NCBI GenBank assembly: GCA_036172455.1
Contig: JAXKVY010000004.1
Span: forward strand, 1 to 64,000
Origin: Candidatus Izemoplasma sp.
Lineage (GTDB): Bacteria; Bacillota_I; Bacilli_A; Izemoplasmatales; Izemoplasmataceae
Direction: 5' to 3'
Length of the DNA: 64,000 nucleotides
Shown: in pieces, positions 1-35,756 of the stretch
How the letters are laid out: the number at the start of each line of letters is the position of its first letter
Numbering within the stretch: the first letter of the stretch is position 1
Position numbers and translations under genes: made by a program
The notes under the pieces: generated by a model
Database searches by the model: none
What the model was told of the DNA's origin: nothing
Seen by the model: the letters and a program-made list of their open reading frames with translations, nothing else

Positions 1-113
1 TGAAGGGTTCTATAATCGAAAAAGGATCCACGGATCCATCGATTATTTAACTCCTCATGAAGTTCATTATTCAAAGAGAGAAATTCTTACTTAAGGTGTC
101 CACTTTCTTGACA
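1..113 (+). mobile_element. 3' end of an IS3-family insertion sequence (transposase C-terminus and right end)
   Basis: Frame 2 from the left edge to the TAA at 92-94 encodes a peptide containing EGFYNRKRIHGSIDYLTP, the typical C-terminal signature of the IS3-family OrfB integrase-core transposase (FYNxxRxHxxLxYxTP). The stop is followed at once by GGTGTCCACTTTCTTGACA (95-113), which looks like the terminal inverted repeat of IS3/IS150-type elements. The rest of the element lies left of the window, so intactness cannot be judged. It abuts an open frame that has no start codon, suggesting that the element interrupted that gene. Confidence 0.8.
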
Positions 114-949
114 TAGATACAAATAGCAATATAACTGTAGTTGAGAAATCCAAAGATATTAGAGATACAGTTTTTAAGCAAGATAACATTTTAGTTGGAT
201 TTTCCAACGATGTGGACAAATACATTGAGGATGCTGTAAGATTTACTTCTGAGACCAATAAATCTACATTTGAAATTGTTATGAATCCTAATACAAACAA
301 GCACGGAGCTAATGCTCTTGATTTTGAAAAAATTCTTTCTGGTATAAGATCTTTGTTCTCAGGAATAGGAAATTCTGCTAATCTCTTTATGGTGCCATCA
401 TTGGGTTCTTTAGTATTGAGATTTTATACTGATGAAGAAACAACGTTATTTAATCAATATCAAACTGATACTAATATAAAGAAAATAGTTACAATGGTCT
501 CAAGTGATAAAGATGAAGTTATACGAGAAATCATTAAAGCAAATCCTAAAATTATTCCGGGGTTACGAAAGTTTACTGAAAGTATCAGTAGGTTAGAAAG
601 TCCTATCAGGGTAATAGCATCATCTCCAGATAATTCATATTTTGTAAACAAAGTTGTTACAAGAAATCAAGTGCAAAGAATTGATCAAGTTATGGAAAAT
701 CTTGATATTGAAGTACAAGAACCTTTTGCTTATATTGGAGAAACACATGCAATTGATATCGATAATAAAACAATTAAATTTATTAATGAAGACGATAAAC
801 TAATTAAAGGAAAGTACGAAATACTTGAGGAAAGAAATTATAAAGTTATCTCAAAGTATAAATTTTCAGGTTTTAAAACATATAAGTTAGACAAAACCGG
901 AAAGGAAATCAGCCCTAAATTTGTGATTACATCAATAGTAGATTTGTAA
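113..949 (+). pseudogene. Unknown protein gene, 5' end cut off by the IS3-family element
   Basis: The reading frame is open from position 95, just behind the IS3 stop codon, through to the TAA at 949. No good start with a ribosome binding site is present; the first possible start is GTG at 212. Codons from about 116 to 211 already look like genuine protein (an acidic, helix-prone stretch ending DNILVGFSND), so translation of the original gene began upstream of the insertion. The remaining 245 or more residues are soluble, rich in Lys, Asp and Ile, without signal peptide or membrane segment. I do not recognise the family. No terminator is evident behind it. Confidence 0.5.
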
Positions 950-1251
950 AATTAATCATGGTTATAGTGAAAAAAGCTCTTGTGATAAAACAAAAAGAAG
1001 ATAATTTATATATCAGTTTAAAGCCGATTTGCATCTTGAAAGCATTTTAATTAATGGTTTTTCAAAATTAGCAAAGAACAATGCTCCATTTTATTTTTTA
1101 CATTGTATTTACCTTTAATTTTTATTAGTACCAGTATGCAGTAGTAGATTTACTGCTGCCTTTTCATTACTTCTGGTGTGAGTTCTTTTACTACTTAGTA
1201 AATCTTAATTAATTTCTTGTCTAAGCAGTTATGGAGATTATTACATTTCAC
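950..1251. other. Gene-poor stretch with a decayed recombinase tail
   Basis: No intact gene is visible. The only recognisable content is the minus-strand recombinase remnant at 1115-1198. The remainder is AT-rich spacer leading up to the antitoxin promoter at 1252. Confidence 0.5.
1115..1198 (-). pseudogene. Decayed 3' tail of a large serine recombinase gene
   Basis: Read on the minus strand, the frame ending at the stop complementary to 1115-1117 encodes SNEKAAVNLLLHTGTNKN. The tail of the recombinase at 2441-4081 reads KNTEAKPLLHTGAYKTK, and the 15 bases ACCAGTATGCAGTAG are identical between the two sites (1130-1144 and 2502-2516). Upstream of this fragment the frame is full of stops, so only the tail survives. 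It lies in the same orientation as the intact recombinases and on the far side of the toxin-antitoxin cargo. Confidence 0.6.
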
Positions 1252-1280
1252 TTGCAATTGGTCCATATATGACCTATAAT
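1252..1280 (+). promoter_or_regulatory. Promoter of the type III toxin-antitoxin locus
   Basis: TTGCAA (1252-1257), a 17-base spacer and a perfect TATAAT (1275-1280) form a strong sigma-A-type promoter. The predicted transcript starts near 1287 and runs into the antitoxin repeats from 1333. The layout matches known ToxIN/AbiQ loci. Confidence 0.75.
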
Positions 1281-1332
1281 ATATACGTAATCAATTTTTT
1301 ACTATCTTTAGTTTAATATTTTGATTACAAAA

Positions 1333-1440
1333 AGTCGGTATTTCTCTACCGTAAGTGAGAATTTAATTAGTTGGTGATACTCTACCATTAAGTGAGTAAT
1401 AAAAAAGTCGGTGACCCTCAGCCGTAAATGGGGAATAAAA
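1333..1440 (+). ncRNA. Antitoxin RNA: three tandem repeats of 35-37 nt (ToxI/antiQ type)
   Basis: Three direct, imperfect repeats follow one another without spacers: 1333-1368 (36 nt), 1369-1405 (37 nt) and 1406-1440 (35 nt). Each begins AGTYGGTG/A, has a central CTACC or CAGCC block, then a GTAAGTGAG-like block and an A-rich end. GGT near the start and ACC/GCC in the middle could pair, as in the pseudoknotted repeats of type III antitoxins. The array lies between a strong promoter and a hairpin, directly upstream of the toxin gene. In this family the toxin cuts the repeat precursor in the A-rich junction and each unit binds one toxin. The middle repeat is the most diverged copy. No promoter other than 1252-1280 is evident. 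Confidence 0.85.
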
Positions 1441-1447
1441 AATAATA

Positions 1448-1474
1448 AATAAGGTGGCTAAGCGCCGCCTTATT
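1448..1474 (+). terminator. Attenuating hairpin between antitoxin repeats and toxin gene
   Basis: AATAAGGTGGC and GCCGCCTTATT form an 11-bp stem with one G-U pair and a 5-nt loop, followed by ATTATA. In type III toxin-antitoxin loci a leaky terminator at this position lets antitoxin RNA exceed toxin mRNA. The weak T-run fits a partial terminator. Confidence 0.75.
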
Positions 1475-1501
1475 ATTATATTAAGGGAAGGTTAGGAAAT
1501 T

Positions 1502-1972
1502 ATGTCATTTAGGGTGGTACGCGTAAAAGATAAATATATCAAACATCTAAGGAAAATTGATAATAAAGTTCCTAAAAACTATAATCAAAAAAGGCCATAT
1601 GTAGGTGTATTGATTACAATTAATGGTTATAATTATTTTGCTCCTTTATCATCACCAAAAAATAAACATAAAAAGATGTCAAATTCAATGTTAGATGTAT
1701 TTAAAATTAAACAAGGTGAATATGGTATCGTTAATCTAAATAACATGATACCTGTCCATGAATCACAAATAATAGAGTTTGATTTCAACAATGAAGATTA
1801 TCAATACAGATTAATTTTAATTAATCAATATATCCATCTGAAAAAAGGAAAAAACCAATTAGAAAGAAAAGCTAGAGTATTATATGAAAAAGTTAAGAAC
1901 GGTCATCAGATCAGTGAGAGATGTTGTGATTTTGAAATTTTAGAAGACGCTTGTTCAAATTTCAAAAAGTAA
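1502..1972 (+). CDS. toxN: Type III toxin, ToxN/AbiQ-family endoribonuclease
   Basis: This 156-residue protein matches the ToxN/AbiQ family in length and in conserved blocks: an N-terminal YIKHLRKIDNKVP segment, the core GVLITINGYNYFAPLSSPK (about residues 35-53), KHKKM, a YGIVNLNNMIPV block (about 76-88) and a C-terminal helix. In characterised members the Ser/Lys region of the APLSSPK block forms the RNase site, and the enzyme cuts both cellular mRNA and its own antitoxin RNA. Free toxin stops growth, for example after phage infection. The start at ATG 1502 is preceded by GGGAAGGTTAGGAAA. The upstream repeat array and hairpin complete a canonical type III locus. No truncation is seen, and all key blocks are present. 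The tandem-repeat RNA makes the assignment firm. Confidence 0.92.
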   Translation: MSFRVVRVKDKYIKHLRKIDNKVPKNYNQKRPYVGVLITINGYNYFAPLSSPKNKHKKMSNSMLDVFKIKQGEYGIVNLNNMIPVHESQIIEFDFNNEDYQYRLILINQYIHLKKGKNQLERKARVLYEKVKNGHQISERCCDFEILEDACSNFKK

Positions 1973-2073: not shown

Positions 2074-2466
2074 ATGTTTAAAGAATTTAATGCCCATCCA
2101 AAGGGAATCAAAACAAACGATTGTGTTGTTAGAGCTATTGCTACTGCAACGAATTCAGATTATTTTGAAACAAGAAGACGTTTGAATAATAAGAAAAGAG
2201 AACTTGGATTCGCTAGTTATAGGGAATCCAAGTTTTTATATGCTTATTTGAAAGACTACCCTCGATTAATATTTAAACCTATAAAAGGGGAACCTAGAAT
2301 AAAGGGGAAAGATTTCGTTTTACTTTATCCCAAAGGCAATTATATTTTAAAAATGGCGGGACATGTTGTTGCTTGTGTAGATGGAACATTAATAGATACA
2401 TGGGATTGTAGTGATCAATCTGTTTATACTGCCTGGGAAATTAACAAAGACGAATACTCCATTTGA
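2074..2466 (+). CDS. Phage-type papain-like (cysteine hydrolase fold) protein
   Basis: The ATG at 2074 is chosen because AGAAGAGGAG (2057-2066) lies at the right distance; the in-frame TTG at 2014 has no binding site. The 130-residue product begins FKEFNAHPKGIKTNDCVVRA and has Cys in NDCVVRAIA, His in KMAGHVVACVDG and Asp/Trp in LIDTWDCSD, in the order Cys-His-Asp expected of papain-like hydrolases. I recall similar small proteins from Firmicutes phages and prophages, without a known role. It follows the toxin by about 100 bases on the same strand and its last 26 bases overlap the 3' end of the convergent recombinase gene. Function is not established. Confidence 0.55.
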   Translation: MFKEFNAHPKGIKTNDCVVRAIATATNSDYFETRRRLNNKKRELGFASYRESKFLYAYLKDYPRLIFKPIKGEPRIKGKDFVLLYPKGNYILKMAGHVVACVDGTLIDTWDCSDQSVYTAWEINKDEYSI

Positions 2467-4081
2467 TTGTTGTATCAATTCTACCTTTTGTTTTGTAGGC
2501 ACCAGTATGCAGTAGCGGTTTCGCTTCTGTATTTTTCATTGTATGATGGTTTAGTTTTTTTCCTGTTACATTGATAAATAAAATGATCGTATCATAATCA
2601 GCTATTAGTAAACCATCAAAAATAGAATTTATGATATCAGGGTTTAAGCTTTGTGTTGGATACGTTAATGCTTTGATACGTTTTTTAATGTCGAGTACAT
2701 GTTGCTGGTGTTCTTCTAGATTGTTGTATTCATCTTCTAATGCAGTATAATTGATACTTTCTTGAATGATGAGTGTTTCTAGTTCGTAGAGTAACATCCG
2801 GTCTTTTTTACTTTTTGGTGTTTTGCGTCCAAGTGCATAATATTGTCTCATATAATCTTCAACAATATGTTCCTGGTCTGTTAACTCTGTTAATATATCA
2901 TCCTTGGATAACAAGTTATTCGTATGGTGATCAAATATGAGTTCCATACGGCCAAATTTTCGCGATAAGGCGTTTAATGATCGGTAGAGTACTTTGGATA
3001 GGTGCTTGTGGTAAAAACGCGGGAGTTGGGAACTAATGAGATAATCTTGCTTATTGGTTTCTTCATCATTGACATCAAGATTGGTTTGTAATCGGTATAT
3101 CTTTTTCTTATGCGGAATGGAATACCCAAATTGTTCGTAGTGTTCAAGGTCTAATCGTTTCCTTTTTTTCTGTTTTCTTTTCTGCTTGTCATAAATAGCT
3201 TGAACTGCATCAAACGTTTCGATATCAATAATCGGTTCATGATGATTATTGATAATGTATTTTGGTTGTTCACCGTTGTTAATACAGCTCTTTTTTTCTA
3301 AACCATCGACTTTAATATAGGTTTTACCATAAATTATCTTCCCGGCGTATTTTTCATTTTTTAGAATCGTTTGTATTTGACTAGGTTTAGTAAAGGGATA
3401 ACCACGAGTGGTTCGGTGGTTTTTACTTTGTACATAGCGGAGGATTGTACCTGGTTTTTCTCCTGCTAGTTTCATTTGAAAAATGGCTCTAACAGTCTCT
3501 GCCTCATCTTCATTGATGATATATTTTCGGTCTTTGGTGATGTCATAACCAAAACATGGATGTATATGTAACTTACCATTTTTTGCTCGACTGCGATGTC
3601 CCCATCGGATGTTTGATGATATTTGTTGAGATTCTGCTTCAGCGAGTCCTGCCATCATTGTAAGAATCATATCAATCGTATAATCAAGAGAAGAGAGATT
3701 TTCTTTTTCAAAGAAGAATTCTACACCTAATTTTCTTGTTTCTTGAATGACTTTTAACGCATCAATGGTATTTCTTGCAAAGCGAGATAGTGATTTCACT
3801 AAGACTAAATCAATATGGCCAGCATAGACTTTTTTAAGTAATGCTTGTAAGCCATCACGTTTTTTCATAGATGTACCACTCTTGCCGTGATCATAATAAA
3901 TACCAGCAAAGATATAGTCGGGGTGAAAGATGATCTCTTTTGCGTAGTAACGGACCTGTATATCTAAAGAAGATTCTTGCATTTCTTGTTTAGTGGAAAC
4001 GCGGGCATATGCTGCGACCCGTTTGATTTGATGTTTATATGCTTTTGCTTGTTTTGATTGTATTATTTTAATATCCTTCAT
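2441..4081 (-). CDS. Large serine recombinase (second of a tandem pair), without zinc ribbon
   Basis: The 546-residue protein has an N-terminal resolvase domain with catalytic Ser29 in RVAAYARVST, the SRFARNTIDAL motif and a recombinase domain (about 190-290, including KNEKYAGKIIYGKTY), then a helical C-terminal region. It would catalyse site-specific DNA integration or excision. Unlike its neighbour it lacks the CxxC zinc ribbon usual in this class. Its start overlaps the end of the upstream recombinase gene by 14 bases, so the two are translationally coupled. The C-terminus after HTGAYKTKGR runs on through 12 codons into the end of the convergent papain-like gene; the related remnant at 1115 stops just after HTGTNKN, so the tail here may be extended by an insertion. 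Expression is probably from the promoter at 5795-5822. Confidence 0.85.
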   Translation of the reverse strand: MKDIKIIQSKQAKAYKHQIKRVAAYARVSTKQEMQESSLDIQVRYYAKEIIFHPDYIFAGIYYDHGKSGTSMKKRDGLQALLKKVYAGHIDLVLVKSLSRFARNTIDALKVIQETRKLGVEFFFEKENLSSLDYTIDMILTMMAGLAEAESQQISSNIRWGHRSRAKNGKLHIHPCFGYDITKDRKYIINEDEAETVRAIFQMKLAGEKPGTILRYVQSKNHRTTRGYPFTKPSQIQTILKNEKYAGKIIYGKTYIKVDGLEKKSCINNGEQPKYIINNHHEPIIDIETFDAVQAIYDKQKRKQKKRKRLDLEHYEQFGYSIPHKKKIYRLQTNLDVNDEETNKQDYLISSQLPRFYHKHLSKVLYRSLNALSRKFGRMELIFDHHTNNLLSKDDILTELTDQEHIVEDYMRQYYALGRKTPKSKKDRMLLYELETLIIQESINYTALEDEYNNLEEHQQHVLDIKKRIKALTYPTQSLNPDIINSIFDGLLIADYDTIILFINVTGKKLNHHTMKNTEAKPLLHTGAYKTKGRIDTTIKWSIRLC

Positions 4082-5765
4082 AGGTTATTACCTCGTATGT
4101 CAATTTTGTTTTTGTTGTGTCATCATAATACTGTCCTACTAAAAAGGGTTTCATTGTTATTAATACCTCAATATTGTCATGTAAATCATCAATGATTGAA
4201 AAGATATTATCAATAACATAGCGAAGATGATTCTTGCCCATGACAAGAATCATTCCAAAGAAGCTTTTGATGATTCGTTTGTCTTCGTAATTGGAATCAA
4301 TAAAGCTCTTTAAGGCGTATAGACGACGTCTTGTAAGAAGTTCTCGGTTGATTTCATTTCTTAGGTTGATGATGTCTATTTCGCATTGTTCTAGTTCCCC
4401 TTCAATTTTGGAGTAAATACTATCATATTCTTCATCGGACATGCCGGAACGTATTTTGTTTCGGACATGTTTTTTAAGTTCGTTCGCTAAATCAACACTT
4501 TTTTCTTTTAACTGTTTTAGGGGTTCATGGGAATTGATTTGTTCTAAGGATTTTTCCATAAAGGCTAAGAGAGCTTGTTGCATGTCTTCTGTCTTGGTGA
4601 GTTTTTTAATGAGATGGAGTGTTGCTTGTTCGACTAGTGGTTCATGAATCGATGGATTGTCACAATTGTGAGGATTGTTTCTGTCTGTATGGCACTTCAA
4701 CATGCGTTTTTTGAAGGTTGTGCCTGAGTTGTGCATTTTTGAATTGTACATGCGTTTGCATCTACTGCAGTATACCAATCCTTTAATTGGTTTATGAGCC
4801 AGATGTTTATAACGTTCTTTGTTATCGTTACTTAATATAATATCCCTTGCATGAATCATTGTTTGGACAATATCAAAGGTTTCTCGATCAATAATGGCTT
4901 CGTGATTATCTTTGATATAGTATTTTGTGGCGTGGCCATCATTGGATACTGTTTTATGGGAAAGATAATCAATCGTGACTGTTTTTTGTAGCATAAGGTC
5001 ACCTACGTATTTTTCATTCCGTAAGATTTCTTTTACGGTATCAGGGTACCAAGTGACAACACCTCGTTCATTTTTATAGCCTTGTGTTTTTAAATGTCTA
5101 GCAAGGCTTGTGATGCCCATACCGTTTAAATATTGATTGAAGATGTACTGTACGGTTTTAGCTTGCTTTTTGTTAATGATGAGTTCGCCTTCATCGTTTT
5201 TATCGTAGCCAAGGAAGTACGTTGTTGTCATCATTAATTGTCCATCAGCAAAGCGTTTGCGAAATCCCCATTTGGTATTTTCACTAATGTTTCTTGATTC
5301 TTCTTGGGCGATCGATGACATAATTGTTAAGATGAAATCAATCTTTGGGTCAGCACTACTAATGTTTTCTTTTTCAAAATAAATTTCGACATTGATTTCC
5401 CGCATTTCTTTGATTACGGTAAGCATGTCAACTGTGTTTCTCGCAAAGCGGGAAATTGATTTGGTGATGATCATATCAATTTTCCCGTTTCTAGCAGCCT
5501 CTAACATGTTCTGCATCCCAATCCGTTTTTTCATACTGGTTCCAGTGATGCCTTCATCACTATACATACCAGCAAATTCCCATTCCGGATTATCTTTAAT
5601 TCGTTTTGTAAATTCTTTGATTTGCACTTGATAAGAATTTAATTGATCAGTCTCGTCGGTTGATACACGGGCATAGGCTGCGACCTTTTTTTGAATTGTG
5701 ATTTCATTGGTTTTTTCATCTTTAAACCGTATTGTTGGTTCAATGATTTCTACATATGTGTTCAT
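4068..5765 (-). CDS. Large serine recombinase (first of a tandem pair), with zinc ribbon
   Basis: The start at 5765 is preceded by AAGGAGG at good spacing; a longer frame to 5822 has no binding site. The 565-residue protein has a resolvase domain with catalytic Ser35 in VAAYARVST, SRFARNTVDML, a recombinase domain with LRNEKYVGDLMLQKT, a zinc ribbon (VYCSRCKRMYNSK ... LKCH ... NC) and a coiled-coil C-terminal part. Enzymes of this class integrate and excise phages or conjugative elements, often in cooperating sets. It overlaps the next recombinase by 14 bases. A decayed tail of a third recombinase lies at 1115-1198. Confidence 0.88.
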   Translation of the reverse strand: MNTYVEIIEPTIRFKDEKTNEITIQKKVAAYARVSTDETDQLNSYQVQIKEFTKRIKDNPEWEFAGMYSDEGITGTSMKKRIGMQNMLEAARNGKIDMIITKSISRFARNTVDMLTVIKEMREINVEIYFEKENISSADPKIDFILTIMSSIAQEESRNISENTKWGFRKRFADGQLMMTTTYFLGYDKNDEGELIINKKQAKTVQYIFNQYLNGMGITSLARHLKTQGYKNERGVVTWYPDTVKEILRNEKYVGDLMLQKTVTIDYLSHKTVSNDGHATKYYIKDNHEAIIDRETFDIVQTMIHARDIILSNDNKERYKHLAHKPIKGLVYCSRCKRMYNSKMHNSGTTFKKRMLKCHTDRNNPHNCDNPSIHEPLVEQATLHLIKKLTKTEDMQQALLAFMEKSLEQINSHEPLKQLKEKSVDLANELKKHVRNKIRSGMSDEEYDSIYSKIEGELEQCEIDIINLRNEINRELLTRRRLYALKSFIDSNYEDKRIIKSFFGMILVMGKNHLRYVIDNIFSIIDDLHDNIEVLITMKPFLVGQYYDDTTKTKLTYEVITYEGY

Positions 5766-5794
5766 GGGTGAAAACCTCCTTTTTGTTAGTATGT

Positions 5795-5822
5795 ATATTA
5801 CCTCTAAAAAGTTTATTATCAA
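5795..5822 (-). promoter_or_regulatory. Promoter of the serine recombinase operon
   Basis: On the minus strand TTGATA (5822-5817) and TAATAT (5800-5795) are separated by 16 bases and lie 30 bases upstream of the recombinase start at 5765. An inverted repeat GTCTTAATATAAGAC (5845-5859) lies just upstream and could be an operator. Confidence 0.5.
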
Positions 5823-5940: not shown

Positions 5941-6687
5941 TTATGTCATTTGAACATCATCAACAGATGGTAAATCGTGAAAATCGTACATTATTTTTTC
6001 GACGATGCCATCAATTGTACTTAAAAATTCTCGGTAGCCCATGTGTTTGATCGTTCGATGATCATAATACATCACGTAGGTTCCTTGTTTAATATCAGTA
6101 ATGAGCTTCGCCCTTGTAATGAATTGTTTAGATCCTCGGCGTGCGTTCATAACAGCGGGGTCTAATCTTTTTTTGCTTGAGTTATCATTTCCATATTCTG
6201 GATGCGTTGCTTTTGGTACGGTAATTAAATACATTCGTTCTGTAGATGTGACATCGATTTTATCTGTTGTTTTTAAACGGAGTAACAATCTTGTATCAGT
6301 TGGTAACTCTAGGGTCTGGTCATGTGCGGTAAGTTGATAGTATTGATACCGGTTAGTTGCAATATCAATTGATTGATTAAAATCATAACTAATTAATGGC
6401 TCTGGTTTGATTTTTTTTACTTTGTGATTTTCATAAGCATAATACAAGGTATCAATTGTGTGATGAATCTGATGGGTAGGTTCACAATCAAATAAATCCT
6501 GGATGGTACATTGGTATAATTTTGATAACGCAACCAAATATGAAGCAGGGGCATTACGTTTTCCTTGTTCATAATTGCGAATGGAAGAAATACCATAGGT
6601 TCTATTTAATGCTTTATATAGGTCTGTTTGAGAATAGCCATGGCCATGTCTCATTGTTTTGCCTATTTTGGGATACGGTGAATGCAT
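5941..6687 (-). CDS. XRE-family DNA-binding repressor with C-terminal sensor-like domain
   Basis: The 248-residue protein has an N-terminal XRE helix-turn-helix (about 10-70: MRHGHGYSQTDLYKALN, SSIRNYEQGKRNAP) and an all-beta-looking C-terminal half. The arrangement resembles phage-type repressors with an S24-like domain, but I cannot identify the Ser/Lys dyad, so cleavage is not claimed. The start ATG is preceded by CAGGAGG. It is transcribed away from the integrase operon at 7320 across a 632-bp control region, as expected for a lysogeny-type or element-maintenance repressor. Confidence 0.7.
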   Translation of the reverse strand: MHSPYPKIGKTMRHGHGYSQTDLYKALNRTYGISSIRNYEQGKRNAPASYLVALSKLYQCTIQDLFDCEPTHQIHHTIDTLYYAYENHKVKKIKPEPLISYDFNQSIDIATNRYQYYQLTAHDQTLELPTDTRLLLRLKTTDKIDVTSTERMYLITVPKATHPEYGNDNSSKKRLDPAVMNARRGSKQFITRAKLITDIKQGTYVMYYDHRTIKHMGYREFLSTIDGIVEKIMYDFHDLPSVDDVQMT

Positions 6688-7319: not shown

Positions 7320-7586
7320 ATGGATAAATTAAAGATAAAAGGGCAAAGCCCTATTTCTTTCATACGATATTACTTATATGATTATCGAAAAACAAATGAT
7401 TATACGATGGAAGACATGGCAGAGATGATGGGAATTAGTCTTAATTATTATGGTGATTTAGAAAAAGGGAATAAGGGTGAAAAGATGTCAATCCATACAG
7501 CATATAAGATTGCTCAAGCATTACAAGTATCATTAGATAACTTATACCTATTAGAAGAAGAGTATCAAGAGAGGATTTTATTATGA
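7320..7586 (+). CDS. Small XRE-family regulator
   Basis: This 88-residue protein is essentially one XRE helix-turn-helix: MEDMAEMMGISLNYYGDLEK and TAYKIAQALQVSLDNLYLLE match the five-helix fold with its recognition helix. The ATG at 7320 has a poor binding site, since GGAG lies 18 bases upstream; no better in-frame start exists because a TAA precedes it. Its TGA overlaps the integrase ATG (ATGA), so it is the first gene of a four-gene coupled operon and probably controls excision or integrase expression. Confidence 0.75.
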   Translation: MDKLKIKGQSPISFIRYYLYDYRKTNDYTMEDMAEMMGISLNYYGDLEKGNKGEKMSIHTAYKIAQALQVSLDNLYLLEEEYQERILL

Positions 7587-8530
7587 TTAAGATACATCCA
7601 TTAGAACCATTAATAACATTATATTGTGACAATCTTGATATTAAGAAAAACAGCATCAGGAGTTATAAGGCCTTGCTAGATCGATATGTCTATTACCTAA
7701 AACGACATAATATTCAGTTTGCTAAACGTTCAGACATCATCGATTATAGAGAACACATGTGGGAAGAAGGTTTACGGGCGAATACGATTCAAAAACAAAT
7801 TGTCGTGATTCGTAATTTCTATCAATGGTTAAAGTTAAATCAACGACAATTTGCCTTAGATGATATCTATCAATTTAATATCGCAGAGAAAATCAAAGGC
7901 GCAAAGATTGATCACAACTATAAAAAAGAACCATTAAACAAAGAACAGGCCATCAAACTCATTGAAGTGGCGAAGCAACAACGAACCGATATTACGGGGT
8001 ACCGTAATTTCGCAATCATCTTGTTAATGATTATCACAGGCGTACGATCAATTGAAGTTGTTCGGGCAAAAAAGGCAGATGTCTCAAGATTGTTTAAGTA
8101 TTCGATTCTTTATGTCCACGGAAAAGGAAAAGATGGGGCAGATACTTTTGTAAAATTATCGAACGAAGTGACGGATGCGATCAATGATTATTTACACAAA
8201 AGAACAGATAATGCTAGGTATTTATTTGTTACGCATGGCGATACATCAAGTTGCCAACAGTTGTCATCAAATACTTTAAGAAGAGCAATTACGAGGTTAA
8301 TGAAACATGCTGGGATTTATGACAAGAAGCATACCCCACATTCATTGCGACACACGACGGCATATCTTAACTTACAGTCGGGTGGATCGTTAGAATCCAC
8401 CCAACAGTTACTAAGGCATAAAAATATTGAGACAACGTTAATTTATGCGCATAACATTAACCGGATGAATGATGATTCAGAATTTCGAATCAATGATTAT
8501 TTATTTCGTGACGAGGAGGAAACGACATGA
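7583..8530 (+). CDS. Tyrosine recombinase (phage/ICE integrase type)
   Basis: The 315-residue protein has an N-terminal SAM-like core-binding domain (about 5-95) and a C-terminal catalytic domain with all expected residues: Arg in ITGVRSIEV, Lys in VHGKGKDG, HSLRH (H-x-x-R), His in LLRHKN and Tyr in TTLIYAH. It carries out strand exchange at attachment sites. It overlaps the preceding XRE gene and the following excisionase gene by ATGA. It is a different recombinase class from the two serine recombinases nearby, so at least two mobile elements are stacked here. Confidence 0.9.
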   Translation: MIKIHPLEPLITLYCDNLDIKKNSIRSYKALLDRYVYYLKRHNIQFAKRSDIIDYREHMWEEGLRANTIQKQIVVIRNFYQWLKLNQRQFALDDIYQFNIAEKIKGAKIDHNYKKEPLNKEQAIKLIEVAKQQRTDITGYRNFAIILLMIITGVRSIEVVRAKKADVSRLFKYSILYVHGKGKDGADTFVKLSNEVTDAINDYLHKRTDNARYLFVTHGDTSSCQQLSSNTLRRAITRLMKHAGIYDKKHTPHSLRHTTAYLNLQSGGSLESTQQLLRHKNIETTLIYAHNINRMNDDSEFRINDYLFRDEEETT

Positions 8531-33166: not shown

Positions 33167-33212
33167 ATAAGTGATTGGTGTAGGGGATAACTTGAAGATA
33201 CAACATAACATA

Positions 33213-33244
33213 AATAAGCACCTGATAGGTGCTTATTTTTTTAT
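33213..33244 (+). terminator. Intrinsic terminator inside the leader of the lipoprotein gene
   Basis: ATAAGCACCT-GAT-AGGTGCTTAT is a perfect 10-bp stem followed by TTTTTTTAT. It lies between the promoter and the start codon of the same gene, so full-length mRNA needs read-through or antitermination. Confidence 0.8.
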
Positions 33245-33269
33245 AAAAGATTATTATAGGAGGCAATGT

Positions 33270-35756
33270 ATGCGCACATTATTTAAGGGATTCATTATCG
33301 TTTTATTGGCATTGATATTAGTGGGGTGTAGTGAAGACACGGCATCCAATGACAATATTAATACCCAGATTTATAGCATTTATGAAATAGCTCTAGAAGC
33401 AGACACTTCAGATATGACTTATGAAGAATGGCTTAAGACAGTTAAAGGACCTCAAGGGGAAGATGGGCGAGAGGTATCTTTACGTGTAGATGATGGAGCG
33501 ATTCAGTGGCGATATGTCGGCGATGATCGCTGGATAAATTTAGTCAAACTGACGACACTGACTGGAAGTGACGGAAAATCCGTAGTATTTCAAGTCGCAA
33601 ATGACCATATTCAATGGCAGTACGTTGGTGATGACACTTGGACAAATCTTATCGCCTTAGATACATTAACTGGTAATGATGGTAAGAATGTAGAATTACA
33701 TGTAACAGAGGGGTTTATTCAGTGGAAACATACAGGCGATGACGTTTGGATGAATTTAGTCGACCTCACGACATTGACCGGCGAAGATGGTCGTGAAGTA
33801 TCATTTCGGGTTGACGGGGGAATGATTCAATGGCAATACATTGGTAATAAAACCTGGAGAAATCTTATTGCTTTAGAAACATTAACTGGTAATGATGGTA
33901 AGAATGTAGAATTACAAGTAACAGAAGGATTTATTCAGTGGAAACATACTGGCGATGACGTTTGGATGAATTTAGTCGACCTCACGACATTGACAGGTAA
34001 AGATGGTCGCGAAGTGTCTTTTCGTGTTGATGAGGGAGCGATTCAATGGCAATATGTTGGTGATGACACCTGGACAAATCTCATAACCTTAGAAACATTA
34101 ACTGGTAATGATGGTAAGAATGTAGAATTACAAGTAACAGAAGGATTTATTCAGTGGAAACATACAGGTGATGATACCTGGATGAATTTAGTCGACCTCA
34201 AAACACTGACAGGTAAAGATGGTCGCGAAGTGTCTTTTCGTGTTGACGAGGGAGCGATTCAATGGCAATATGTTGGTGATGACACCTGGACAAATCTTAT
34301 TGCCTTAGATACATTGACAGGTGAAGATGCTAAAGACGTTACCTTTCAAGTAACTGATAATACCATTCAGTGGCAATACATTGGTGATAACACATGGACT
34401 GATTTAATTGACTTAAATAATGTTATTGATGTATCTGGGATTGAGTCAAGTATCACAGCCTTAGAAGATCGGGTTACGCAGTTAGAATCAGACTTAGAAA
34501 GTAGTGATTTGCAAGAACAATTATCTACCACTATAGATACAGTAACAAGTTCGGTTGTGGGTGTAAAAACCTATCAAAGTGATGAATATGTTGCGCTAGG
34601 TAGTGGTGTAATTTATAAGCAAATAGAAGATACATATTATGTCATAACCAACTATCATGTTGTTGAATCAGGTGATAATTTTAAAGTATACCTTCATGAT
34701 AATTCAGAAAAATCAGCAACATTAGTAGGCTATGATTATTACAGCGATTTAGCAGTACTAACCTTTACGACAACAAATACCTATACAACATCATCCTTAG
34801 GAGATAGCAACTTACTTATGCCTGGTGATTTTGTGTTTGCGATGGGATCACCGTTAGGATTGGCAAATTACAATTCAGTGACATTTGGAATTATTTCAGG
34901 AACCAATCGGTTACTTCCATCTTATTTAGACGATACCTATTATGGAGAATTATTCATTCAACACGATGCGGCGATTAATCCAGGAAATAGTGGTGGACCA
35001 CTATTTGACTTAGAGGGTAATGTGATAGGCATTAACAGCCGAAAATATGTTGGTGACTATGTGGATACGATGGGATATTCAATACCATCTAATGCCGTAA
35101 GTAATGTCATTAGCGTAATTGAAACGGGTGAATTTTATAAACATGCAGGGAATTGGTATGAAACCATGATTAGTGTCAACTATGTCAGAAATAATCCATC
35201 ACTTTACCCTGAAATCACGATTCCCGACACGGTTATTAATGGTGTTTATGTCGATACACCAGATCCTGATGGTATCTTTGGCCTTGCCGGTATGCAAGAT
35301 GGTGATATTATTTTAGCGATTAATGATACATTAGTAAACTTCTGGTATGAAGTTAAACACCAGATTTATTACCAAAATTTACCTACCGATAATATTACTT
35401 TTACCGTACATCGAAATGGTAGTGTTGTTGAATTAACATATAACCCAACGACTTACACCTATGGTTATTATTGGTATGAAGTTATTACATTTAGTAATAG
35501 GGATATGTATTATGGTGAGATGTATGATTACTACATGCATGGAGATGGTGCCTATTACTTTAGTGATGAAGACTATTATATTGGAGAGTTTTCGTTCGAC
35601 GAACCAAATGGATTTGGTACGTATTATTGGCCGAATGGGGATTACTTTGAGGCAGATTGGATAGATTGGGATAATACAACAAATGGTATATATTATTATG
35701 CCGATGGTACCACTGAAAATAAGAATCTTCAGAACGGGTATTGGGTGTATTATTAA
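33270..35756 (+). CDS. Repeat-rich surface lipoprotein with HtrA-like protease, PDZ and MORN repeats
   Basis: ATG 33270 after AGGAGG gives an 828-residue protein. Residues 1-20 are a lipoprotein signal peptide (lipobox LVGC, Cys20). After EEWLKTVKGPQGEDG come nine tandem 36-residue units (residues 66-389) of the form GxxVxxxVxxGxIQWxYxGDD, then TW-x-NL and LTG-x-D. A short coiled coil (about 390-425) leads to a trypsin-like protease domain with the full triad: His in VITNYHVVESG, Asp in YYSDLAVLTF and Ser in INPGNSGGPLF. A PDZ-like domain (GMQDGDIILAINDTLV) and C-terminal MORN repeats (MHGDGAYYF, YYIGEFSFDEPNGFGTYYW) complete it. It should act on the outer face of the membrane in protein quality control or surface processing. 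The combination is unusual. The repeat tract may change length by recombination. Confidence 0.88.
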   Translation: MRTLFKGFIIVLLALILVGCSEDTASNDNINTQIYSIYEIALEADTSDMTYEEWLKTVKGPQGEDGREVSLRVDDGAIQWRYVGDDRWINLVKLTTLTGSDGKSVVFQVANDHIQWQYVGDDTWTNLIALDTLTGNDGKNVELHVTEGFIQWKHTGDDVWMNLVDLTTLTGEDGREVSFRVDGGMIQWQYIGNKTWRNLIALETLTGNDGKNVELQVTEGFIQWKHTGDDVWMNLVDLTTLTGKDGREVSFRVDEGAIQWQYVGDDTWTNLITLETLTGNDGKNVELQVTEGFIQWKHTGDDTWMNLVDLKTLTGKDGREVSFRVDEGAIQWQYVGDDTWTNLIALDTLTGEDAKDVTFQVTDNTIQWQYIGDNTWTDLIDLNNVIDVSGIESSITALEDRVTQLESDLESSDLQEQLSTTIDTVTSSVVGVKTYQSDEYVALGSGVIYKQIEDTYYVITNYHVVESGDNFKVYLHDNSEKSATLVGYDYYSDLAVLTFTTTNTYTTSSLGDSNLLMPGDFVFAMGSPLGLANYNSVTFGIISGTNRLLPSYLDDTYYGELFIQHDAAINPGNSGGPLFDLEGNVIGINSRKYVGDYVDTMGYSIPSNAVSNVISVIETGEFYKHAGNWYETMISVNYVRNNPSLYPEITIPDTVINGVYVDTPDPDGIFGLAGMQDGDIILAINDTLVNFWYEVKHQIYYQNLPTDNITFTVHRNGSVVELTYNPTTYTYGYYWYEVITFSNRDMYYGEMYDYYMHGDGAYYFSDEDYYIGEFSFDEPNGFGTYYWPNGDYFEADWIDWDNTTNGIYYYADGTTENKNLQNGYWVYY
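33465..34436 (+). repeat. Tandem repeat: nine 108-bp (36-aa) units
   Basis: The units lie in frame within the lipoprotein gene. Units 3 to 8 form a higher-order repeat of about 216 bp (two types alternate: GKNVELQVTEGFIQWKHTGD and GREVSFRVDEGAIQWQYVGD), nearly identical in DNA between copies 5-6 and 7-8. Units 1, 2 and 9 are more diverged, as expected for the edges of an expanding array. Confidence 0.9.

What the first reader, a model, noticed from the sequence alone, without database searches (positions are those of the whole stretch)
1252..1972. Complete type III toxin-antitoxin locus (ToxIN/AbiQ type)
A strong promoter, three tandem repeats of 35-37 nt, a leaky-looking hairpin and a 156-aa ToxN/AbiQ-like protein follow one another in the canonical order of type III systems. 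Only about 500-700 bases are needed, so this is easily missed when the repeats are not read. The element sits in mobile DNA, and such loci give abortive infection against phages. The repeat sequence (AGTYGGTG... CTACC... GTAAGTGAG) appears to differ from those I know (ToxI, antiQ), so it may be a new specificity class.
Basis: partly seen in the sequence, partly recalled or inferred. Interest (0 to 1): 0.78.

Follow-up and report, generated by a model that had tools for sequence, protein, structure and literature searches.

The report
Ordinary ToxIN-type RNA-antitoxin/toxin locus
This is a complete, ordinary-looking toxin-antitoxin cassette of a well-known kind, in which a short repeated RNA holds an RNA-cutting protein in check; such pairs elsewhere stop phage infection or stabilise mobile DNA, and nothing found here makes this one a new class.

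Summary
A promoter-like site (1252-1280), three 36-37-nt tandem units (1333-1440), a terminator-like hairpin (1448-1474) and a 156-aa ORF (1502-1972) lie in type III toxin-antitoxin order. The ORF is ToxN (Pfam E=1.2e-46); its AlphaFold model matches three solved ToxN toxins and AbiQ at Z about 22. Each unit fits the ToxI pseudoknot, and the differing copies keep stem 2 through paired changes. No shuffle (0/5000) gave a chain of three such units. Across 12 relatives 94% of cells pair, against 35-47% when slid.

The hint of a "new specificity class" is not supported: the same core and 5' tail precede ToxN in Phascolarctobacterium and on a Fusobacterium plasmid, and 470 relatives exist in one genome collection.

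Modest points: the array is unusually heterogeneous; the R1-R2 junction has lost the A-run where such toxins usually cut; and the cassette lies between two diverged 104-nt repeats, one the 3' end of a serine recombinase gene. Only 1 of 49 genomes of the family has ToxN, so horizontal gain is likely. Function (phage defence or element maintenance) is inferred, not shown.

The parts
1252..1280 (+). Promoter-like site (TTGCAA, 17 nt, TATAAT) for the toxI-toxN transcript
   Evidence: Consensus scan; not above chance in number for this AT-rich stretch, but in the position expected for the family
1333..1368 (+). ToxI repeat 1; pseudoknot core from 1336 (S1 CGGU/ACCG, S2 UUCUC/GAGAA); 3' junction AATTTAATTA lacks an A-run
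1369..1405 (+). ToxI repeat 2; pseudoknot core from 1372 (S1 UGGU/ACCA, S2 UACUC/GAGUA); 3' junction AATAAAAAA
1406..1440 (+). ToxI repeat 3; pseudoknot core from 1409 (S1 CGGU/GCCG with a U-G wobble, S2 CCUC/GGGG with a U-G wobble); A12 and A21 in place of the usual U12 and G21
1448..1474 (+). Terminator-like hairpin between antitoxin and toxin gene, weak T tract (attenuator)
   Evidence: (1452-1480 folds at -11.3 kcal/mol, z -2.15)
1484..1496 (+). Purine-rich ribosome-binding-site-like stretch before the toxin start
   Evidence: Read from sequence
1502..1972 (+). toxN: 156-aa type III endoribonuclease toxin (ToxN/AbiQ family)
   Evidence: Pfam PF13958 1.2e-46, PADLOC AbiQ 1.2e-45, PDB 4ato/7d8o/2xd0/4glk, model Z 21.6-21.8 to the same structures
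1065..1168 (.). Left copy of a diverged direct repeat that flanks the cassette (remnant of a serine recombinase 3' end)
   Evidence: 73% identity over 107 aligned columns to 2438-2540, E 1e-7; shares ACCAGTATGCAGTAG, found only at these two places in the genome
2438..2540 (.). Right copy of the flanking direct repeat; overlaps the 3' end of the serine recombinase gene 2441-4081(-)

Best explanation
The locus is a complete type III toxin-antitoxin module of the ToxIN family. One transcript starts near 1285. Most of it should end at the hairpin 1448-1474 and give the toxI RNA; a minor share reads through and gives the ToxN mRNA. ToxN should cut the toxI precursor in its A-rich junctions into pseudoknotted units of about 36 nt, which bind it head to tail in a closed ring and block its active site. 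When transcription stops (phage shut-off) or the DNA is lost, the unstable RNA precursor runs out and free ToxN cuts A-rich mRNAs and stops growth. Shown here: family, fold, active-site residues, repeats, pseudoknot pairing, order of parts. Inferred from studied relatives (PMC5086642, PMC8860590, PMC10853763): transcription, processing, ring assembly, toxicity, phage defence or element maintenance.
For: Toxin: PF13958 E 1.2e-46 over 4-154 of 156 aa, AbiQ profile 1.2e-45, PDB 4ato 3.7e-22. Model pLDDT 90.8 and Z 21.6-21.8 to the three solved ToxN toxins and AbiQ, 13.9 to CptN, 7.0 or less to MazF/CcdB. Active-site positions of ToxN_Pa Y29, K33, T52, S53, K55 (PMC5086642) read Y27, R31, S50, S51, K53 in the alignment; S51 is invariant in both large alignments, and R31 and K53 in that. 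Antitoxin: TRF array; three pseudoknot units at 36-37-nt spacing, 0 of 5000 shuffles. In 12 units from different hosts 93.7% of cells pair against 35-47% when slid, with 19 two-sided changes against 5.3 in shuffles. In 98 units selected without regard to S2 pairing, S2 pairs in 86% against 39-47% slid, and pair 10-24 occurs as CG, TA, GC and AT. Between the window's own copies S2 reads UCUC/GAGA, ACUC/GAGU and CCUC/GGGG. Same order of parts in relatives.
Against: No transcript, processing or toxicity data. The promoter is only a consensus match. The terminator's T tract is weak. Repeat 1 departs from the usual G5/A6, and its junction to repeat 2 lacks an A-run, so one of three units may be less active. 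The plain MFE fold of the array is not better than shuffles, as expected for pseudoknots, which that program cannot form.
Confidence: 0.95

Rival explanations
1. A ToxIN module that is decaying: toxin intact, antitoxin array losing function copy by copy.
For: Array only 70% self-identical where many relatives exceed 90%. Repeat 1 lacks G5/A6. The R1-R2 junction lost its A-run.
Against: The pairing of both stems is kept in all three copies through paired changes. The toxin reading frame and active-site residues are intact. Heterogeneous arrays with intact pairing occur in other ToxIN loci, e.g. L031, L126, L127. An intact toxin with a failed antitoxin could hardly be kept.
Confidence: 0.1
2. 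A maintenance (addiction) module of the mobile element next to it rather than a phage-defence module.
For: Lies beside two large serine recombinases and a HTH regulator, is flanked by diverged direct repeats and is absent from 48 of 49 genomes of the family. Plasmid stabilisation by ToxIN systems is documented (PMC5086642). 193 plasmid records carry relatives.
Against: Same molecular parts serve phage defence in studied members; the two roles are not exclusive, and sequence cannot separate them.
Confidence: 0.4
3. A chance repeat in AT-rich DNA upstream of a lone ToxN gene.
For: AT-rich region; plain MFE not better than shuffles.
Against: 0/1000 shuffles reach the TRF score and 0/5000 the three-unit pseudoknot chain; same core in unrelated hosts in the same place.
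Confidence: 0.005

Closest known systems
ToxIN of Pectobacterium atrosepticum / E. coli (PDB 2xd0, 7d8o)
   Same: Order promoter, repeats, hairpin, toxin; 25-nt ToxI core with S1 and S2; fold Z 21.8; active-site positions conserved or conservatively changed
   Different: 28-29% identity in the structural alignment; 3 units, where the Pectobacterium plasmid locus L036 has about 10 and E. coli clusters 3 to 5.6; K33 is R, T52 is S; heterogeneous units
AbiQ/antiQ of Lactococcus (PDB 4glk, pSRQ900)
   Same: Toxin family, fold Z 21.7, about 3 units, Ser at the position of AbiQ Ser51
   Different: antiQ core has a shorter loop 2 and A12/G13 in every unit; here only repeat 3 has A12/G13
ToxIN locus of an uncultured Phascolarctobacterium (L049)
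   Same: Nearest toxin in the tree (97/90 support), 48% identity; repeats share AAAAGTCGGTGA...CTACCG...AAGTG
   Different: Units nearly identical to each other; all junctions A-rich
ToxIN on Fusobacterium polymorphum plasmid pKKCOM1330A (L038)
   Same: AAAAAGTCGGTGTACTCTACCGTATAAGTGAGAACTA repeats, with a divergent last unit (CAGCC...GAATG) like repeat 3 here
   Different: Toxin about 43% identical; four units; different toxin branch

Membership tests
Type III toxin-antitoxin, ToxIN family | Toxin homologous to ToxN/AbiQ | tested here: met
   PF13958 1.2e-46, 159 bits against a cut-off of 25; AbiQ profile; PDB matches
Type III toxin-antitoxin, ToxIN family | ToxN fold with RNase active-site residues | tested here: met
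   Z 21.6-21.8 to 7d8o, 2xd0, 4glk, 4ato; Y27, R31, S50, S51, K53 at the active-site positions (with PMC5086642)
Type III toxin-antitoxin, ToxIN family | Tandem array of about 34-40-nt repeats upstream | tested here: met
   TRF 1329-1442, period 36; 0/1000 shuffles
Type III toxin-antitoxin, ToxIN family | Each repeat forms an H-type pseudoknot | tested here: met
   Pairing and covariation across units; by sequence only, no probing
Type III toxin-antitoxin, ToxIN family | Rho-independent terminator between array and toxin gene | tested here: met
   1448-1474, 11-pair stem, weak T tract (2 sites found in the region against 0.3 expected)
Type III toxin-antitoxin, ToxIN family | Single promoter upstream of the array | tested here: inconclusive
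   TTGCAA-17-TATAAT present, but such matches are about as frequent as in shuffles
Type III toxin-antitoxin, ToxIN family | ToxN processes the antitoxin RNA and is neutralised by it | not testable with these tools
   Needs RNA and growth experiments
Abortive infection system | Lowers phage yield through host growth arrest | not testable with these tools
   Known for relatives (PMC5377504, PMC10853763); not shown for this locus
CptIN / TenpIN families | Toxin closer to CptN or TenpN than to ToxN | tested here: not met
   Z 13.9 to CptN (4rmo) against 21.6-21.8 to ToxN/AbiQ; only PF13958 passes its cut-off. TenpN has no row in the structure list and was not compared directly.

The most novel reading that the evidence does not exclude
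The array is functionally split. The R1-R2 junction has lost its oligo-A cutting site, so ToxN would release a joined R1-R2 double unit and a single R3 with a changed helix junction (A12-U22 pair instead of the U-U-G triple). This would give an unusual stoichiometry or ring instead of the equal units of known ToxIN systems.
Probability: 0.15. Interest if true: 0.35.

Novelty: new member of a known kind. Interest (0 to 1): 0.17.

Why it matters
It adds one clear, complete ToxIN locus in a bacterial family where no other sampled genome has a ToxN, with an array whose copies differ yet keep their pairing. This makes it a natural set of compensatory mutants of the ToxI pseudoknot. Otherwise it is an ordinary member of a family with hundreds of known relatives.

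Tried and rejected
Rfam has no matching family (three sub-threshold chance hits). NCBIfam gave only chance hits for the toxin. Plain MFE folding of single units and of the array is uninformative, because S1 and S2 exclude each other in nested folding; it finds S1 in unit 1 and S2 in units 2 and 3. Searches with the window toxin alone found no close relative in viral or genome contigs; a 6-sequence alignment did. A 22-sequence alignment was too diverse for that search. Idea rejected: a coordinated U12A13G21 to A12G13A21 change marking the last unit of arrays. It occurs in the last units of L001, L038, L004 and L030, but many arrays carry A12/G13 in all units, or G12/C12 with matching partners, so it is ordinary variation of one helix-junction pair. 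An early scan missed arrays of loci held on the minus strand; corrected.

Full report
What was checked. The finding names a promoter, three tandem repeats, a hairpin and a ToxN-like protein at 1252-1972. All are present at those places. TRF gives an array at 1329-1442, period 36, 3.1 copies, 70% matches, score 100; none of 1000 dinucleotide shuffles of the region reached that score (maximum 59). The hairpin 1448-1474 has an 11-pair stem and a weak T tract; terminator-like sites are scarce by chance (0.3 expected). The promoter TTGCAA-17-TATAAT is well placed, but such matches are no more frequent than in shuffled sequence (10 against 7.0 with sd 3.0).

The protein. The 156-aa ORF matches Pfam ToxN_toxin over almost its whole length (E 1.2e-46, 159 bits against a cut-off of 25) and the PADLOC AbiQ profile (1.2e-45). 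By sequence it finds ToxN of B. thuringiensis (4ato, 3.7e-22), E. coli (7d8o), Pectobacterium (2xd0) and AbiQ (4glk) in the PDB. An AlphaFold2 model on 31 homologues has mean pLDDT 90.8 and aligns to these four structures with Z 21.6-21.8, rmsd 2.0-2.2 over 151-154 residues; CptN follows at 13.9 and MazF/CcdB at 7.0 or less. The active-site residues given for ToxN of Pectobacterium (Tyr29, Lys33, Thr52, Ser53, Lys55; PMC5086642) align with Y27, R31, S50, S51 and K53. S51 is invariant in alignments of 22 and 31 homologues; R31 and K53 are invariant in the latter. Ser at the T52 position is what AbiQ has (PMC5086642).

The antitoxin. In the crystal structure of E. coli ToxI (PMC8860590) the 25-nt core has stem S1 of four pairs, stem S2, G5, A6 and a U12-U22-G21 triple. 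My reading of the core (S1 1-4 with 13-16; S2 9-11 with 23-25, often longer) fits that description. The three units of the window fit with starts at 1336, 1372 and 1409. S2 reads UCUC/GAGA, ACUC/GAGU and CCUC/GGGG in units 1, 2 and 3; the outer S1 pair is C-G, U-A, C-G. The copies differ but the pairing is kept. A chain of three such units occurs nowhere else in the 64-kb window and in none of 5000 shuffles.

Relatives. A search with a 6-sequence alignment found 470 relatives in one collection of genomes, of which 80 were kept, and nine in viral contigs; 193 plasmid records and two phage records hold relatives. Most oriented loci carry a repeat array in the same place. On 98 distinct units chosen by a sequence motif that does not use S2, S2 pairs in 86% of cells against 39-47% when slid; position pair 10-24 occurs as C-G 38, U-A 24, G-C 12 and A-U 6 times. 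On 12 units from the window and representative relatives, 93.7% of cells pair against 34.7-46.8% in slid versions, with 19 two-sided changes against 5.3 in shuffles. The shuffle control ignores relatedness between sequences, so the slid control is the safer one. The pseudoknot is therefore well supported at the sequence level.

Is it a new specificity class? The evidence is against it. Units with the same 5' tail and core (AAAAGTCGGTGA...CTACCG...AAGTG) precede ToxN in an uncultured Phascolarctobacterium (L049), on a Fusobacterium polymorphum plasmid (L038) and, with smaller changes, on a Sutcliffiella plasmid and in Paenibacillus. In a tree of 52 toxins the window protein groups with the Phascolarctobacterium toxin (97/90 support), which agrees with the co-evolution of toxin and repeat described before (PMC5086642). 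Specificity itself can only be settled by cross-neutralisation.

What is slightly unusual. First, the array is more heterogeneous than most (70% matches; many relatives exceed 90%). Unit 1 has A5/U6 in place of the usual G5/A6, and unit 3 has A12-U22 with A21. Both states occur in other loci, including the last unit of the Fusobacterium array. Second, the R1-R2 junction (GAATTTAATTAG) has no run of three or more A, while R2-R3 and R3-hairpin have six A. Of 205 junctions scored, 20 had runs under three; on inspection, apart from chance units, these are arrays that lack the run throughout, plus the window and one Cohnella array (L080) where only one junction lacks it. Studied ToxN proteins cut in A-rich sites (PMC5086642, PMC8860590), so poor cutting between R1 and R2 is a testable prediction, not a result.

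Surroundings. The locus lies near the start of a 182-kb contig of a 1.69-Mb genome in 10 contigs. Just downstream is a 130-aa ORF of a phage family of unknown function (phrog_3754, 4.9e-28). Then, on the minus strand, come two large serine recombinases and a HTH regulator, followed by a tyrosine recombinase on the plus strand. A 104-nt stretch at 1065-1168 matches 2438-2540, at the 3' end of the recombinase gene, at 73% identity; their shared 15-mer ACCAGTATGCAGTAG occurs only at these two places in the genome. The toxIN module and the small ORF thus sit between two diverged copies of a recombinase gene end, which suggests a cassette gained by recombination there; the mechanism is inference. 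ToxN is absent from the other 48 genomes of the family searched and present in 27 of 392 sampled from the phylum, this one included, so horizontal gain is likely.

Mechanism. From the studied family: the toxI transcript is cut by ToxN into pseudoknots that close a ring and block the active site; shut-off of transcription depletes the unstable RNA and frees ToxN, which cleaves A-rich mRNAs (PMC5086642, PMC8860590, PMC10853763). The weak T tract after the hairpin would let a share of transcripts reach toxN. All functional steps are inferred for this locus.

Verdict.

Noticed in passing
window 1065-1168 and 2438-2540: Diverged direct repeat (73%) flanking the toxIN module; the right copy is the 3' end of a serine recombinase gene, the left a remnant. 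The 15-mer ACCAGTATGCAGTAG occurs only at these two places in the genome.
   Followed up: partly
window 2074-2466 (+): 130-aa ORF downstream of toxN, related to phrog_3754 (unknown function, 4.9e-28); its D-C-V-V-R-A and G-H-V-V-A stretches recall a cysteine peptidase (impression from reading, not tested).
   Followed up: partly
window 2441-5822 (-): Two adjacent large serine recombinases, 44% identical over about 280 aa, with a HTH regulator at 5941-6687; a tyrosine recombinase follows at 7583-8530.
   Followed up: partly
window 1-115: Contig starts with what reads like the C-terminal end of an IS3-type transposase (EGFYNRKRIHGSIDYLTPHEVHYSKREILT) and a terminal-repeat-like sequence; too short for a Pfam hit.
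   Followed up: no
window 1258-1275: The promoter spacer holds small palindromes (GGTC...GACC, CATATATG), possibly an operator; not tested.
   Followed up: no
window 33609-34333: Tandem array of 108/216-bp units (3.4 copies of 216 bp, score 1142) inside the 861-aa ORF 33171-35756.
   Followed up: no
L132 repeat units, positions 12 and 22: In ToxI units of relatives position 12/22 occurs as U-U, A-U, G-C and C-A, e.g. CTCAGCC...AAATGAG beside CTCGGCC...AAACGAG in one array, which suggests that this junction pair is under pairing constraint.
   Followed up: partly
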